NCBI GenBank assembly: GCA_000611775.1
Contig: KK106983.1
Span: 3,747,072-3,811,071, forward strand
Length of the DNA: 64,000 nucleotides
Direction of reading: 5' to 3'
From: Umbilicaria muhlenbergii
Taxonomy: Eukaryota > Ascomycota > Lecanoromycetes > Umbilicariales > Umbilicariaceae
Every line of letters starts with the position of its first letter. Position 1 is the first letter of the stretch. Under the pieces are notes generated by a model. The model saw only the letters and a program-made list of their open reading frames with translations, was not told the DNA's origin and searched no databases. The translations under genes were made by a program, and so were the position numbers. Shown here one piece after another: positions 26,175-43,299 of the stretch.

Positions 26175-26214
26175 ATGGCTGGCAATGGCTGGCAATGGCT
26201 GGCAATGGCTGGCA
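26175..26214. repeat. Tandem repeat, 4 x 10 nt
   Basis: Four consecutive perfect copies of ATGGCTGGCA. Non-coding as far as can be seen. Confidence 0.95.
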
Positions 26215-26368
26215 AGCATCCAGGGCAGCATCTGCACGCAAGCCAAGCCCCGGTGCGCAATCGTCAGGGTCTACCCCGGCACCGTTCTTCTGACAGCTAT
26301 CTCGTAATCGACCTCGAATCTCCATCACGACCCTGAGACGACTACGACTATCCCCAGCTGCATCGCCG

Positions 26369-37300: not shown

Positions 37301-37722
37301 GGGTTGCAGACGACAGGGCTGTAATGTTCTGGGGATGCGGTCTACGAGGGTTTAGTCTCGAGTTGATGAGGATAGGATAGGGAAGTAGGGTGAGATGGGG
37401 AATTACGTAGTATTAGGTTAGTATCTTGCTTCGATCCATCTAACGGTTTCATGGCAACCGCCGCTTTAGTGTAGTGCTTCTCCTCGCTGTTTCTTCCACC
37501 GTCGTGACTATGTGCGGACGGATGGGGGGTGGAGGAGGTTAGTCAACTCTTTCTACGCTGATTATCAATTCCTCCATGCCTCGGCTCGGAAAGTTTGTAA
37601 AGAGGCACTTGGACTACTAGGGAGCGCTACTGGCAGTTGGAACTTGTATAGTATGTACGACTTCTGTCGTCGCCTCTGGGGTGAGAGTGGGAGATTGATG
37701 CACCGCGGCTGGAAGAGTAAAA

Positions 37723-39901
37723 TTATATGAGAGAGAGGCTTTGTTGGCTGGTGTCGTACTCGTTGGATGAGGTTTGCTCATATGACGTCGCGTATGATTG
37801 GTCGTAGGATGCCTCGTAGGACTGCTCATAGGACGTTTCTTCGGTTTGGTCGTAGGAAAGCTCGGTTTGGTCGGTTTGGTCGTAGGAGGTTTGGTCGTAG
37901 GAGGTTTGGTCGTAATTGAGGGACTGGTCGTAGGTATCTGTCTCTGCGTAGGCGGTCGTTTGGTCGTAGGTGTCGGTTTCGGCGTAGGTGTTTGCTTGGT
38001 TGTAGACGTCCGTTTCGTTGTAGACGTCCGTTTCATTGTAGATGTTTGTCTCGTTGTAGATGTCTGTATCGTTGTAGACGTTTGTCTCACTGTAGATGTC
38101 GTTTTCGCTGTACGAAAGGTCAGGATTCTTCTAATCAAATTTAGAAAGGGCGAGGCATGAGTGGAAGAGGGTTTGGATTGCTGTAGGGTTTCAGAGAATA
38201 AGAAGACAGCTACAAAGGAGAGGTTTCAGAGACTCTCCGATAGAGAGATTTTCGTAGCTTAGGGAGGCATAGAGGAGTTTGAGGAGTAGAACGGAATTCA
38301 TTACCTCTCCACATTTACTCTTTCTTCTTCATAGACTTCTGCCTCGTTGTAGACGTCCCTCTTGTCGTAGATATTGGTCTGGTCGTAGACATCCACCTCG
38401 TTGCGAATATTGGTCTGGTCGTAGACGTTGGTCTGGTTGTAAACATCGGTCTCGGCGTAAACATTAGACTGGTTGCAGATTTCGGTCTCGTTATATACAT
38501 TCGTTGTCGAGTCATGCAAGGCAAGACCCCGAGTCGCATCTACCAGGCCCGAGGTCGCATAATCACCCTCATCAACCACGTAGGTTTGATCATATTCGTA
38601 GTTCCGCGTCTGTATACAGTTAGTGTGTTGCCATCAAATATCTATAGCACATCCGTATCGCTTACCTGGTAACTGGTGTCATACTCCGTCACGTTATAAA
38701 CATTGGTTTGGTTGTACACATCCACCTCTGTCTGATCATACACTGTAGTGTTGATCTCTCGACTCGTATCAAAGGTTGCAACCGGAGCTGGACCGCCGAA
38801 TCCTTGTGTTGCGCCATAAATTGCAACTGGAGCCCCTACAGCAGCAACCGCAATTGGGGCTGCACGAACAGCTCCCGCAGGATAGTTACTTTGCTGTACT
38901 GTTTCAGTGTAGACGACCTGCTGGGGCTGTGACGGGACGTATTCGACCCATTGGCCGGTACGGAGGTCGCGGTATGACTGTTGTGTCGCGTTCTGCTGGA
39001 CTACAGTACGAGACACAGTGACAGGCTCACCGCGTGCACCCGACACAGGTGCAGCTGCAGGTCGTGCGAGAGCAGCAGGGGCAGCAGATCTTGCGGCAGC
39101 TCCAAGTGCTGCAAAAAGTCCGGGTTTAGCTGCAGCTTTTGTCGGGGCTGGCGCAGGCTTGTATCCTAGCTGGTCTATTTTCTTCGTAATGAGTGGGGCC
39201 GCTGCGCCTATGATCATACCAAGGGCGCCCATTGTGCCTCCTGCAGCCAATCCTCGTGACGTAGTTGGACCTTGTGTGCCCGGTGGTGGGCCTTGTGTAG
39301 CGCCTTGGCCCGGTCCACCTGCTCCTGGTGGTAGTGGTGCCCTGACAGCGCCTGAAGGTGGTCCGCCTGGACCTGGAGGGGGTGGGCCTCTTGCAGCAGT
39401 TGCTGGCGGACCTCCCGCAGCTGGCGGAAGTGAGCCTCTCGCAGTGCCAGGTGGAGGCGGGCCTCCCGCGCCTGGCGGTGGGCCTCTTACGGCACCTGGC
39501 GGGGGTGGGCCTCGAGCTCCTGGTGGTAGAGGACCTCTCGCGATGCCTGGTGCAGGCGGTCCCCTTGCAACCCCAGGTGGGAATGGGCCTCCCGAGCTTG
39601 GCGGAGGTGGACCTCTCGCAACACCCGGTGGAGGTGGACCCCTCGCAAGGCCTGGCGGAGGCGGTCCTCTCGGACCTGGTGGAGGCGGCCCCTTCATAAG
39701 GTTTGTCGGAGCACCTGGCGGTAAAGCTCGGCCAGCGGTTGGAGGTGGCATTTCGGCAGCGTTAGCAGGTGGTGGTCTCGCAGGAGCTGGCGGTGAGGCT
39801 CCAGTCGGATTTGTCGGAGCTGCTTTTAGTCCATGAGCAGGGGCTCCGGGAGTATGGACAACTGGGGCACTGGCAGCAGTAGCAGCCGCCGCGGCCGACA
39901 T
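37723..39901 (-). CDS. Low-complexity protein with PPPPG and VYN[EQ]T hexad repeats
   Basis: Three exons, 39901-38666, 38609-38305 and 38107-37723, join in frame to 641 residues. After an Ala-rich start (MSAAAAATAASAPV) residues of about 70-230 are degenerate PPPPGxARG-type repeats. A short middle segment (MGALGMIIGAAAPLITKKIDQLGYKP) and RDLRTGQWVEYVPSQPQQVVY look less biased. The C-terminal 240 residues are Tyr/Asn/Gln/Thr-rich: ten hexads of the form [TN][DN][VI]Y[ND][EQ] in exon 2, ten more in exon 3, then YDQT-type units to the end. Many units contain an N-E-T or N-Q-T glycosylation sequon, yet no signal peptide is seen. No family is recognised; a phase-separating, fibrous or wall protein is possible. 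The start at 39901 is chosen over 39997 because the sequence between is unlike the rest. Confidence 0.7.
37760..38500. repeat. Coding minisatellite, 18-nt period
   Basis: Two arrays of diverged 18-nt units coding for Tyr-containing hexapeptides, at about 37930-38107 and 38320-38500, separated by a 197-nt intron. Shorter 12-15 nt units (coding TSYDQ) follow at about 37760-37930. Confidence 0.85.
39300..39715. repeat. Coding minisatellite, Pro/Gly-rich
   Basis: Diverged repeats of about 24-30 nt coding for PPPPGxARG-like units on the minus strand, within exon 1 of the low-complexity gene. Confidence 0.85.
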
Positions 39902-40622: not shown

Positions 40623-43299
40623 TCATGACCGTCTCTCATGTCCATTTCCCTCCACATGTCCTACAGTCGGAATATCCGAGTTTATGCGCTTATTCGTGGA
40701 TGGGCCGAACATATTCGACACTCGATCCAGACTCCAACGCCGATCCTGTACTCGATGGATCGGGTCGACTTGTGCCTTCGCCGCGGGTACAATAACCAGG
40801 TAAGCAGGGAAGACCGACCCGAAAGCGAAGACTGCTACCACGACACAAAACGCGTATTGTAGTCCTCTGCTGTTCGAGATGGGACTCATGATGGCAGGGC
40901 CTATCATGCCACCCGATATCGCTGCCGTCAAGAGAGCAGAACCGGTCTTGGTGTGCTTGCCTAGGCCGCGGATCGAGATGGCGTAGATCAGGGGGAAGGT
41001 GCCGGACTCGAAGAGCATGATCAGGATAACCATGGCGATGCCCGCATTTCCCGAGAGGCTCATGGCCAGAGCAGAACTGACGATCAGCCCGAGGTAGAGG
41101 AACATGAGAACCAAGCTCGGGCTTATGAAATAGCATGCAAATGCGGATATGAACCGACCGACCGCAAAGAATGTGCGTCCTATGGTCAGGTAGTCAAAGG
41201 GCACAATGGCAGGACGTGGCTGAACCTGCAGAATGTATACTTGAAAATTGCTCACTACTGATTCCTGGCCGCCAACATAGCAGAATTGCGAGAAGATACC
41301 CAGCGCCAAAGTCACGTAGATGACCGGACAGCCAAGAACTTCCTTTGAATTGGTAGTTTCCCTTCGTTCTGCCAGTATCGCCAAGTCCTCGTCCGATGCT
41401 TCTGGGATATGAGCATAATAAAAAGCAATGGCTAGAACGACGTCGAAGATTGCAATACCCAGATATGCCCATTGTACACTGACAAGAGACGGCGCATCAG
41501 ATACGTTCCTGAAAAGAACTTTCCGGGCCAGTAGCGGCGAGAGCACACTGCCTATAGCTTGTACACCTTGCGAGGCGTTCAAACGAACTTCGGCATACTG
41601 CGGGGGACCGCAAATAGTGACGAAGAGGTTGCAAGCTATTTCCAAGGTAGCCAAACCAAGACCGACGATGAAGTTGGAGATAAGGAATGCCGGGAACGAA
41701 GTTAGGACGGCAGATGGCCAGAAAACAAGCGTACCGCAGCCGTAGATACATAGCCCGAGGACAAAACATGGTTTGAATCCCCATTTCTTGAGAACGAATC
41801 CGCCATAAGCGAGTGGCGCAACGAAGTATCCAGCATAATAGGCAGAGTGCAAACCAAGCGACTGCGTAGTAGTCAGGTTTACGATCAACTGGAATTGGCT
41901 ATTGAGCACACTGAGAAGGCCGTAGGCGAATCCCCAGAGGAAGAACAAAACCGTAACGAGAACCAAGGGGAAGAACGACTTGCTGTTGCTCATGTGCAAC
42001 ATACTCTTTGGCCTGTTGATGTCCACAAAGTCGAAGAAGGCCGTACTTCCTGTTCGGACGGTGGCCACAGTCGGTGATCTAGTCACCGGATCGGCCGTTT
42101 CAGGGATGGTGATAAACTCCAACATGTTCATTTCATTAGCACTTGAGCCTGGGCCTGTATCCATGGGTGGGTTGCCAGAAGTGGCTCGAGGGTCTTTCTC
42201 GACCGTCGGATCAGAACGAGGACCATCGCTGCCTCTGCTGCTAACGTAAGTGCGGTCATAAGTGTCGTATGTTTCGTTGACGTCCCGGAGCATGCTAGGA
42301 AGGATCCTCGAGACCAGCGGCTTCAATGCAGGTACGCAAGCGCACATGATTCCAACGTGTACCTCGATAGCAGACCACATGAACGACAGGGATGCATACC
42401 ACGAGAAGTCTCCTGGCTGGGATACCCGTGATTCGGGGGTGTTTTTTTGTCCAAGCTCATCACCAAGCTCTTGTAGGCGCACCAGAGACGCTGATTGTAG
42501 ATATGCAATCCGGACCACATCGACAACCGCTACGAAAACCCCAAAGCTGAAGGTGATGATTAAGATGATCTTTTGCTTTCGTGGTAGCCGCAAGCTCGTC
42601 AGAATAGGCATGGGCAGTACCAGGATTGCAAGGTCGGTAATGATATTAACAGGGGCAGATGACAGGTATAGAGTAACGATATCGGTGCATATCGCGTTTG
42701 TTGGTGACGGGTCTTGAAAGACAGCCGCGATGGGTCTACATGGGAAGATGTTGACAAAGGTCAATGCTAACCCAGCTACATTGACCACAACGATGGTAGC
42801 GATGGTTAAGCCCCGGAACACTTTATGACTCTTCGATAAGGTAAGGTAAAAGATGAGGATGGACGTCTTCGTAGCCATCAAGACGGGGTTCTGTGTCTGT
42901 TAGCTTATGCTCAAGGCACTATCAGTGAAGGGACCACGCACGTAGAGAACCGAGAACCCGTATTCTGATTTCTTGAGTCCCGAATGCCATTCAGGCTTGA
43001 CATCGACTTCGTGCCGGCCCAGTCCTACGTGCGTGCCCCAACAGATCGAAAAGGAGAAGCCAAAAGCAATGAGCTGATTATCCACGTCAGTATGCCTGCA
43101 TGCTGGAGCCACCTCTCTGCGCAGTCCAACATACCCAAGCCAGCACGATAAAGTAATCGTCCCAAGATATCTTTCTGACAATGCCGATGCGAGAGATGAG
43201 GCGCAGGGAAACGACGGCCGTGGAGGCAGCAAGCAGTGCGATCGTGACCGCAAGCACGACCGGGCCCCGGTTTTGCATGGACTCGATGGAGTCCGCCAT
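40623..43299 (-). CDS. Fusion protein: rhodopsin-like domain plus MFS (fucose-permease-type) transporter
   Basis: Exons 43299-43135, 43073-42942 and 42890-40623 (introns 61 and 51 nt) give 854 residues. Residues of about 1-300 are a complete fungal rhodopsin-like domain: SLRLISRI after helix 1, WDDYFIVLAW, NPVLMATKTSILIFYL, IFPCRPIAAVF, and a last helix EVHVGIMCACVPALKPLVSRI. A roughly 100-residue Ser/Asp/Pro linker follows. From about residue 405 (FFPLVLVTVLFFLWGFAYGLL) there is a 12-helix MFS of the sugar/fucose-permease group, with NSQFQLIVNLT, YYAGYFVAP and RLNASQGVQAIGSVLSP. The linker and both junctions lie in the third exon with no stop, so the fusion is not an artefact of joining exons. 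Possibly a sensor-transporter (inference). Confidence 0.9.

What the first reader, a model, noticed from the sequence alone, without database searches (positions are those of the whole stretch)
37723..39901. A 641-residue protein built of PPPPG repeats and two decads of Tyr-containing hexapeptides
Exons 2 and 3 each code for ten consecutive hexads of the form [TN][DN][VIT]Y[NDA][EQ], then the array degenerates into YDQT units. The hexad register is kept across a 197-nt intron and every join is in frame, so the protein is under selection for its repeat geometry. A Pro/Gly-rich repeat region forms the other half. Tyr/Asn/Gln/Thr-rich arrays with a fixed period suggest a fibrous, beta-solenoid-like or phase-separating protein. 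Most units also carry an N-x-T sequon but there is no visible signal peptide. No family is recognised.
Basis: partly seen in the sequence, partly recalled or inferred. Interest (0 to 1): 0.75.

Follow-up and report, generated by a model that had tools for sequence, protein, structure and literature searches.

The report
Lichen fungus two-block repeat protein gene
A predicted gene of what is probably a lichen fungus seems to encode a floppy protein whose arginine- and proline-rich half and tyrosine-rich acidic half look built to stick to each other, but nothing yet shows that it is made or what it does.

Summary
The gene model is on the minus strand at 39901-37723: three exons, 644 or 641 residues depending on which of two in-frame forms of intron 2 is used. 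The Tyr hexads are real: 17 of 37 Tyr-Tyr spacings in residues 386-644 equal 6; 0 of 20,000 shuffles reach that. The hexad register is not kept across intron 2 (Tyr-Tyr 14 in the 197-nt model, 11 in the other). Sequons number 7 in 22 six-residue blocks, not most. In-frame joins do not show selection for geometry.

New is a two-block layout: residues 1-385 have net charge +20 and 21 of 26 Arg; residues 386-644 have net -51 and 38 of 44 Tyr. No Pfam, PDB, protein-database or own-genome relative was found, although a neighbouring gene finds fungal relatives. AlphaFold gives no confident fold for exon 3.

Best guess: an apparently lineage-restricted, disordered, self-associating scaffold. Expression and self-association are inferred.

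The parts
38666..39901 (-). exon 1 (residues 1-412): Ala-rich N-terminus, Pro/Gly/Arg repeats, central segment, first Tyr units
   Evidence: open frame with 0 stops against 7-13 in the other five frames over the same stretch; ATG and donor located
39257..39706 (-). Pro/Gly block, residues 66-215: RGPPPPGxx-type repeats, 37.3% Pro, 24.7% Gly, net charge +11, no Tyr
   Evidence: all 9 Arg-Arg spacings are 8, 9, 16 or 17, reached by 0 of 20,000 shuffles; the spacing set was chosen after seeing the data
38894..39019 (-). residues 295-336, possible small beta-meander between the two blocks
   Evidence: AlphaFold2, single sequence: four strands; pLDDT 79 and 70 in residues 307-316 and 317-326, about 50 in the flanking blocks; whole-model mean 47.5. 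Foldseek found nothing at E <= 0.001
38666..38746 (-). first Tyr units, at the 3' end of exon 1 (residues 386-412), in the frame of the long exon 1 ORF
   Evidence: TVYDQT and DVYNQT at residues 386 and 394; this anchors the hexad frame
38610..38665 (-). intron 1, 56 nt, phase 0
   Evidence: GTAAGC donor, ACTAAC branch-like site, CAG acceptor
38322..38501 (-). hexad array of exon 2, residues 449-508 (10 units, 8 with Tyr)
   Evidence: (first 9 units); 18-nt, 36-nt and 54-nt DNA periods
38131..38318 (-). intron 2, model A (188 nt); model B is 38304-38108 (197 nt). Retention would end the protein at an in-frame stop just after the exon 2 array
   Evidence: no RNA data to choose between the models
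37723..38130 (-). exon 3 with stop codon (model A; starts at 38107 in model B)
37903..38100 (-). hexad array of exon 3, residues 520-585 in model A (11 units, all with Tyr)
37726..37902 (-). degenerate tail of YDQT-like units, residues 586-644 in model A
   Evidence: Tyr spacings 5, 5, 10, 8, 4, 4, 4, 4, 8 from residue 582 on

Best explanation
This is a real, apparently lineage-restricted protein gene of a lichen-forming ascomycete. It most likely encodes an intracellular, mostly disordered, self-associating scaffold. One block carries evenly spaced Arg in a Pro/Gly background; the other carries evenly spaced Tyr in an acidic Asn/Gln/Thr background. In the proposed mechanism the halves of neighbouring molecules pair through opposite charge, Arg-Tyr cation-pi contacts and Tyr-Pro stacking, so that one chain supplies both partners of a condensate or gel. 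Shown here: the gene anatomy as a prediction, the two periodicities and the charge segregation. Inferred: expression, disorder, self-association, and any role (for example at septa or in drying).
For: Residues 1-385 have net charge +20 and residues 386-644 net -51; the best split separates 75 charges, reached by 0 of 5,000 shuffles, shuffle maximum 51. 38 of 44 Tyr are in residues 386-644 and 21 of 26 Arg in residues 1-385. Tyr period 6 and Arg spacing 8-9 or twice that both beat all 20,000 shuffles, the Arg set having been chosen after seeing the data. AlphaFold2 finds no confident fold in exon 3 (pLDDT 42.7). The charge-hydropathy rule places residues 386-644 clearly on the disordered side (0.358 against a boundary of 0.484). 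Passages of PMC10850361 say that aromatic and Arg residues drive phase separation of prion-like domains and that Tyr can also contact Pro. The hexads show pN/pS 0.54, lowest of six frames.
Against: No RNA or protein evidence was available. No relative was found, so conservation cannot be tested. The charge-hydropathy rule puts residues 1-215 (0.445 against 0.435) and 216-385 (0.508 against 0.428) on the ordered side, and the whole chain only just on the disordered side (0.427 against 0.431). The C-terminal block at net -51 could repel itself and stay soluble. Both AlphaFold runs were single-sequence. Synonymous codon use scores the claimed frame highest of six in exon 1 as a whole and in exon 2, but in exon 3 below another open frame; the same test is near zero on the genes used to train it. 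The pN/pS margin over the next frame is small (0.54 against 0.60; among the forward frames of exon 3 alone 0.65 against 0.71). The source on stickers itself reports only a moderate correlation (R2 0.59) of aromatic and Arg count with co-partitioning.
Confidence: 0.45

Rival explanations
1. The PPPPG repeats are a multivalent landing strip for a proline-binding module (GYF, WW, SH3 or OCRE), and the Tyr array is a tail with another role; the protein is an adaptor rather than a self-assembling scaffold.
For: Repeats such as RGPPPPGLARG resemble the CD2 motif PPPPGHR bound by a GYF domain and the OCRE consensus RPPP(P)G-phi-R (passages of PMC5127646). Two GYF domains over the Pfam cut-off occur in the same genome. 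Seven runs of four Pro.
Against: 0 exact matches to the OCRE consensus; only 2 PPGxR and 5 PPGxxR sites; no run of five Pro, no PPxY and no FPPPP. GYF domains were to be expected in any fungus (recalled).
Confidence: 0.18
2. The array is largely neutral: an 18-nt in-frame microsatellite-like expansion in a young or weakly constrained gene, possibly not expressed.
For: DNA tandem periods of 18, 36 and 54 nt; no relative found; register broken at intron 2; several overlapping frames open in the Pro/Gly block and in exons 2 and 3.
Against: A 412-codon open frame followed by a canonical-looking intron; pN/pS 0.54 among hexads, though by a small margin over other frames; charge segregation and two separate spacings.
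Confidence: 0.17
3. It is a stress- or septum-associated disordered protein that works like the DDR48/Cprp or SPA/SPP proteins of fungi, without being their homologue.
For: Cprp is a repetitive fungal protein with Tyr motifs that accumulates next to septa, and DDR48 is described as a stress-response protein of NNxDSYGS repeats (passages of PMC10512284). Disordered, sometimes proline-rich regions send SPP proteins to septal pores (passages of PMC10023807).
Against: One [GS]Y[GS] motif, no SYG and no NNxDSYGS. SPP/SPA disordered regions are biased to Arg and His and against Lys and Gly; here Gly is 9.8% and His 0.5%, Lys 1.4% (fits), of the whole protein and without a background set.
Confidence: 0.12
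4. The hexads stack as a beta-solenoid or amyloid-like fibre.
For: Fixed six-residue period with recurring [VI], Tyr and Thr positions.
Against: AlphaFold2 gives pLDDT 42.7 for exon 3 and DSSP assigned nothing to the model (single sequence, so weak); two arrays broken by an out-of-register linker; net charge -30 in exon 3 alone.
Confidence: 0.06

Closest known systems
DDR48/Cprp family of fungi
   Same: Low-complexity fungal repeat protein with Tyr at the core of a short repeat and Asn/Asp around it (PMC10512284, passages)
   Different: The repeat is [DN][VIT]Y[ND][EQ]T, not NNxDSYGS; Gly is 1.2% of residues 386-644; there is an added Pro/Gly/Arg block
FUS-type Tyr-rich prion-like plus Arg/Gly-rich proteins
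   Same: Tyr stickers in one region and Arg in a Gly-rich region of the same chain
   Different: No RNA-binding domain found by Pfam; the Tyr block is strongly acidic; Arg sits in PPPPG repeats rather than RGG (the FUS comparison is partly recalled)
Septal-pore SPA/SPP disordered proteins
   Same: Disordered proteins of filamentous ascomycetes, some proline-rich (PMC10023807, passages)
   Different: More Gly and little His; no sequence comparison with them was made
SmB/CD2-type PPPPG-R motifs
   Same: PPPPG followed by Arg, repeated
   Different: Spacing is mostly PPGxxR; 0 exact OCRE motifs; no Sm domain found by Pfam

Membership tests
DDR48/Cprp family | Many [GS]Y[GS] motifs, mostly SYG, in an NNxDSYGS-like repeat | tested here: not met
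   1 SYS, 0 SYG, 0 NNxDSYGS
DDR48/Cprp family | Enrichment in Asn, Ser, Asp and Gly | tested here: inconclusive
   Residues 386-644: Asn 10.0%, Asp 31 of 259, Ser 8.1%, but Gly 1.2%; whole protein led by Pro and Ala; no background set was compared
SPA/SPP septal proteins | Septal-pore localisation | not testable with these tools
   needs a GFP fusion
SPA/SPP septal proteins | Disordered regions biased to Arg and His, against Lys and Gly | tested here: inconclusive
   His 0.5% and Gly 9.8% speak against, Lys 1.4% fits, Arg 4.0%; whole protein, not compared with a background set
Two-block sticker proteins (works-like claim, not a homology family) | Segregated Arg and Tyr stickers with opposite charge | tested here: met
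Two-block sticker proteins (works-like claim, not a homology family) | Phase separation or self-association | not testable with these tools
   needs purified protein
Beta-solenoid / hexapeptide-repeat proteins | Predicted or solved solenoid fold | tested here: inconclusive
   AF2 on exon 3 alone, single sequence: pLDDT 42.7, DSSP assigned nothing; exon 2 was not modelled
Beta-solenoid / hexapeptide-repeat proteins | Match to a profile of the family | tested here: not met
   no Pfam family at E <= 1 for exons 2 and 3
Secreted or cell-wall repeat proteins | N-terminal signal peptide | tested here: inconclusive
   Best 19-residue hydropathy within residues 1-40 is 0.78; no dedicated predictor was run
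GYF / OCRE ligands | PPPPGHR or RPPP(P)G-phi-R motif | tested here: inconclusive
   0 exact OCRE motifs, 2 PPGxR, 5 PPGxxR

The most novel reading that the evidence does not exclude
A single-chain complex coacervate: one fungal protein carries a periodic Arg/Pro polycation-like block and a periodic Tyr polyanion-like block, each with its own fixed spacing (8-9 and 6), so that the chain is complementary to itself and forms a reversible gel in the cytoplasm of a drying-tolerant lichen fungus. A retained intron 2 would give a natural short form with the exon 2 Tyr array but not the exon 3 one, a possible way to tune it.
Probability: 0.17. Interest if true: 0.65.

Novelty: new variant of a known kind. 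Interest (0 to 1): 0.4.

Why it matters
Repetitive disordered proteins are easily missed by gene finders and homology searches, so their roles in lichen fungi are little known (inference). If this one self-assembles, it is a compact natural example of a chain whose two halves carry different sticker types at different regular spacings, which would let rules of condensate formation be tested on one protein. The genome matches the approximate size and the scaffold count of Umbilicaria muehlenbergii, a lichen fungus that can be transformed (PMC3999499), so knock-out and tagging may be practical.

Tried and rejected
Homology: the joined model (residues 215-644 scored) and exon 1 (residues 215-412 scored) against 5.8 billion proteins gave nothing (0 of 7,996 scored candidates at E <= 1e-3; 0 of 7,994 at E <= 1). 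Low-complexity words may have crowded out a true relative, so this does not prove absence. Own-genome search for exon 3 found itself, two pieces of the exon 2 array, and two chance-level hits at E 0.58 and 3.6; the 202-aa end of exon 1 found only itself. Genome contigs: 49 pattern matches, 0 confirmed; this collection is bacteria and archaea, so the result is expected. Viral contigs: 2 pattern matches, 0 confirmed. Plasmids: one weak hit in Borrelia hermsii over 49% of exon 3 at 28.8% identity, E 6e-3, taken as composition. PDB by sequence: one hit at E 0.11 for exon 3, none at E <= 1 for exon 1, two at E 0.81 and 1.1 for the central piece; exon 2 was not given to the PDB search. Pfam: DUF1631 at E 0.21 and gpW at E 0.041, both below their cut-offs. 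Fold search of the central model: 78 matches at E <= 10, none at E <= 0.001.

Codon-usage frame test: uninformative, because the six known genes used as controls score between -0.050 and 0.049 per codon although the table was trained on them.

Rejected ideas: profilin, EVH1 or PPxY-type WW ligand (no P5, FPPPP or PPxY); Kex2-processed repeat protein (one KR and one KK site, no RR, and no evident signal peptide); N-glycosylated wall protein (7 sequons in 22 blocks and no evident signal peptide). Rfam (gathering threshold) and tRNA scans of the window were empty.

Papers: ten searches, each listing 1 to 20 titles, some of them cut (20 of 25, 8 of 60, 8 of 16, 5 of 35, 8 of 15). No listed title or abstract describes this protein; only looked for such a repeat directly, and only open-licence papers are held.

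Full report
Gene model. The finding lies on the minus strand. An ATG at 39901 opens 412 codons without a stop, while the other five frames of the same stretch carry 7 to 13 stops. The exon ends in CAG followed by GTAAGC at 38665; intron 1 is 56 nt with an ACTAAC branch-like site and a CAG acceptor. Exon 2 starts at 38609. Both end at 37723. Intron 2 is less certain than intron 1: its only branch-like match is ACTCAT at 38162. If intron 2 is retained, the protein stops at an in-frame TAA just after the exon 2 array (read).

The repeats. Under a relaxed pattern, written after seeing the sequence, exon 2 holds 10 hexads, two without Tyr; exon 3 holds 11; exon 1 already ends with 2. In residues 386-644, 17 of 37 Tyr-Tyr spacings equal 6; shuffles give a mean of 2.5 and a maximum of 9, with 0 of 20,000 reaching 17. 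The register breaks at intron 2, with a Tyr-Tyr distance of 11 or 14, so the claim of a kept register is wrong. There are 7 sequons in the 22 six-residue blocks of residues 451-582, linker included.

Frame and selection. The 18-nt DNA period leaves more than one frame open in places, so the frame has to be shown. It is anchored by the Tyr units in the long exon 1 frame, followed by a canonical-looking intron. Among 20 units (9 of the 10 of exon 2 and the 11 of exon 3), pN/pS is 0.54 in the claimed frame, the lowest of six, but other frames give 0.60 and 0.73, and among the forward frames of exon 3 alone the margin is 0.65 against 0.71. These units are paralogous repeats, not orthologues. A codon-usage test did not discriminate: the claimed frame scored highest of six in exon 1 as a whole and in exon 2, not in residues 216-412 and not in exon 3, where another open frame scored higher, and the training genes themselves score near zero.

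Two blocks. Residues 1-385 have net charge +20 and 21 of 26 Arg; residues 386-644 have net -51 and 38 of 44 Tyr. No shuffle of 5,000 reached the observed charge separation of 75 (maximum 51). In the Pro/Gly block, residues 66-215, all 9 Arg-Arg spacings are 8, 9, 16 or 17, reached by 0 of 20,000 shuffles; I chose the spacing set after seeing the data, so this figure flatters the result. The hydropathy maximum is 1.67 at residues 343-361, marginally above the classical 1.6 limit (recalled), so a membrane segment is not excluded.

Structure. AlphaFold2 on exon 3 alone gave pLDDT 42.7, and DSSP assigned nothing to the model. Residues 217-412 gave mean pLDDT 47.5, with a possible four-stranded patch at 295-336 of which residues 307-326 reach 70-79. 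Foldseek against the PDB found nothing at E <= 0.001 among 78 matches at E <= 10. Both models are single-sequence and weak; exon 2 and the Pro/Gly block were not modelled. The charge-hydropathy rule calls residues 386-644 disordered, the whole chain only just so, and 1-215 and 216-385 ordered, the first marginally; the rule is poor for Pro- and Ala-rich sequence (recalled).

Relatives. No match in Pfam at cut-off, none convincing in the PDB, none in 5.8 billion proteins, and none in the own genome beyond the gene itself and two chance-level hits. As a control, the neighbouring rhodopsin-MFS gene found 1,520 proteins at E <= 0.001 among 6,284 candidates; the best of the 120 listed is 89% identical and the best named one is Lasallia pustulata at 81%. 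The database therefore holds close fungal relatives, and the lack of a match suggests fast divergence or a young gene; missed gene calls or crowding by low-complexity words cannot be excluded.

Organism. G000 has 34,788,950 bases in 7 contigs. Umbilicaria muehlenbergii KoLRILF000956 is reported as 34,812,353 bp in seven scaffolds and amenable to transformation (PMC3999499, part 1 of 2 of the text read). With the Lasallia match this makes Umbilicaria likely, but the assignment is inferred. Two points do not fit exactly: the sizes differ by about 23 kb, and all 32 two-kb blocks of the window have 47.6-58.1% G+C, above the reported genome mean of 47.12%; a gene-rich window could explain the latter.

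Mechanism. Passages of PMC10850361 report that aromatic and Arg residues drive phase separation of prion-like domains and that Tyr can contact Arg and Pro; they also report only a moderate correlation (R2 0.59) and call the full picture more complex. Passages of PMC5127646 describe tyrosines stacking on a polyproline helix. By analogy, the Arg/Pro block and the acidic Tyr block could bind each other within and between chains. This is inference from layout; no step of it was shown.

Comparison. By works-like, the nearest are Tyr/Arg sticker proteins, DDR48/Cprp (PMC10512284, passages) and septal-pore disordered proteins (PMC10023807, passages). By membership, the DDR48 motif test fails; the composition tests for DDR48 and for septal proteins are inconclusive. 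I file it as a new variant of a known kind, the disordered repeat scaffold, not as a member of a named family.

Noticed in passing
40626-42899, minus strand: One open frame carries a fungal rhodopsin domain followed by an MFS transporter domain. All 120 listed database relatives (of 1,520 found) carry both Pfam domains, so the fusion is a common fungal architecture.
   Followed up: partly
37620-38225, minus strand, second frame of exon 3: The exon 3 hexad DNA is also open in a second frame that would give a Thr/Pro/Lys-rich basic peptide (173-aa ORF; 202 codons stop to stop). By my reckoning donor 38304 joined to acceptor 38131 would lead into it; no evidence that it is used.
   Followed up: partly
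39018-39836, plus strand: A 272-aa open frame opposite the Pro/Gly block, likely a by-product of the repeat composition.
   Followed up: no
26175-26215: A perfect 10-nt tandem repeat, ATGGCTGGCA, 4.1 copies.
   Followed up: no
L008 and L009 (own genome, contig 1): Two GYF domains over the Pfam cut-off, possible partners for PPPPG repeats.
   Followed up: no
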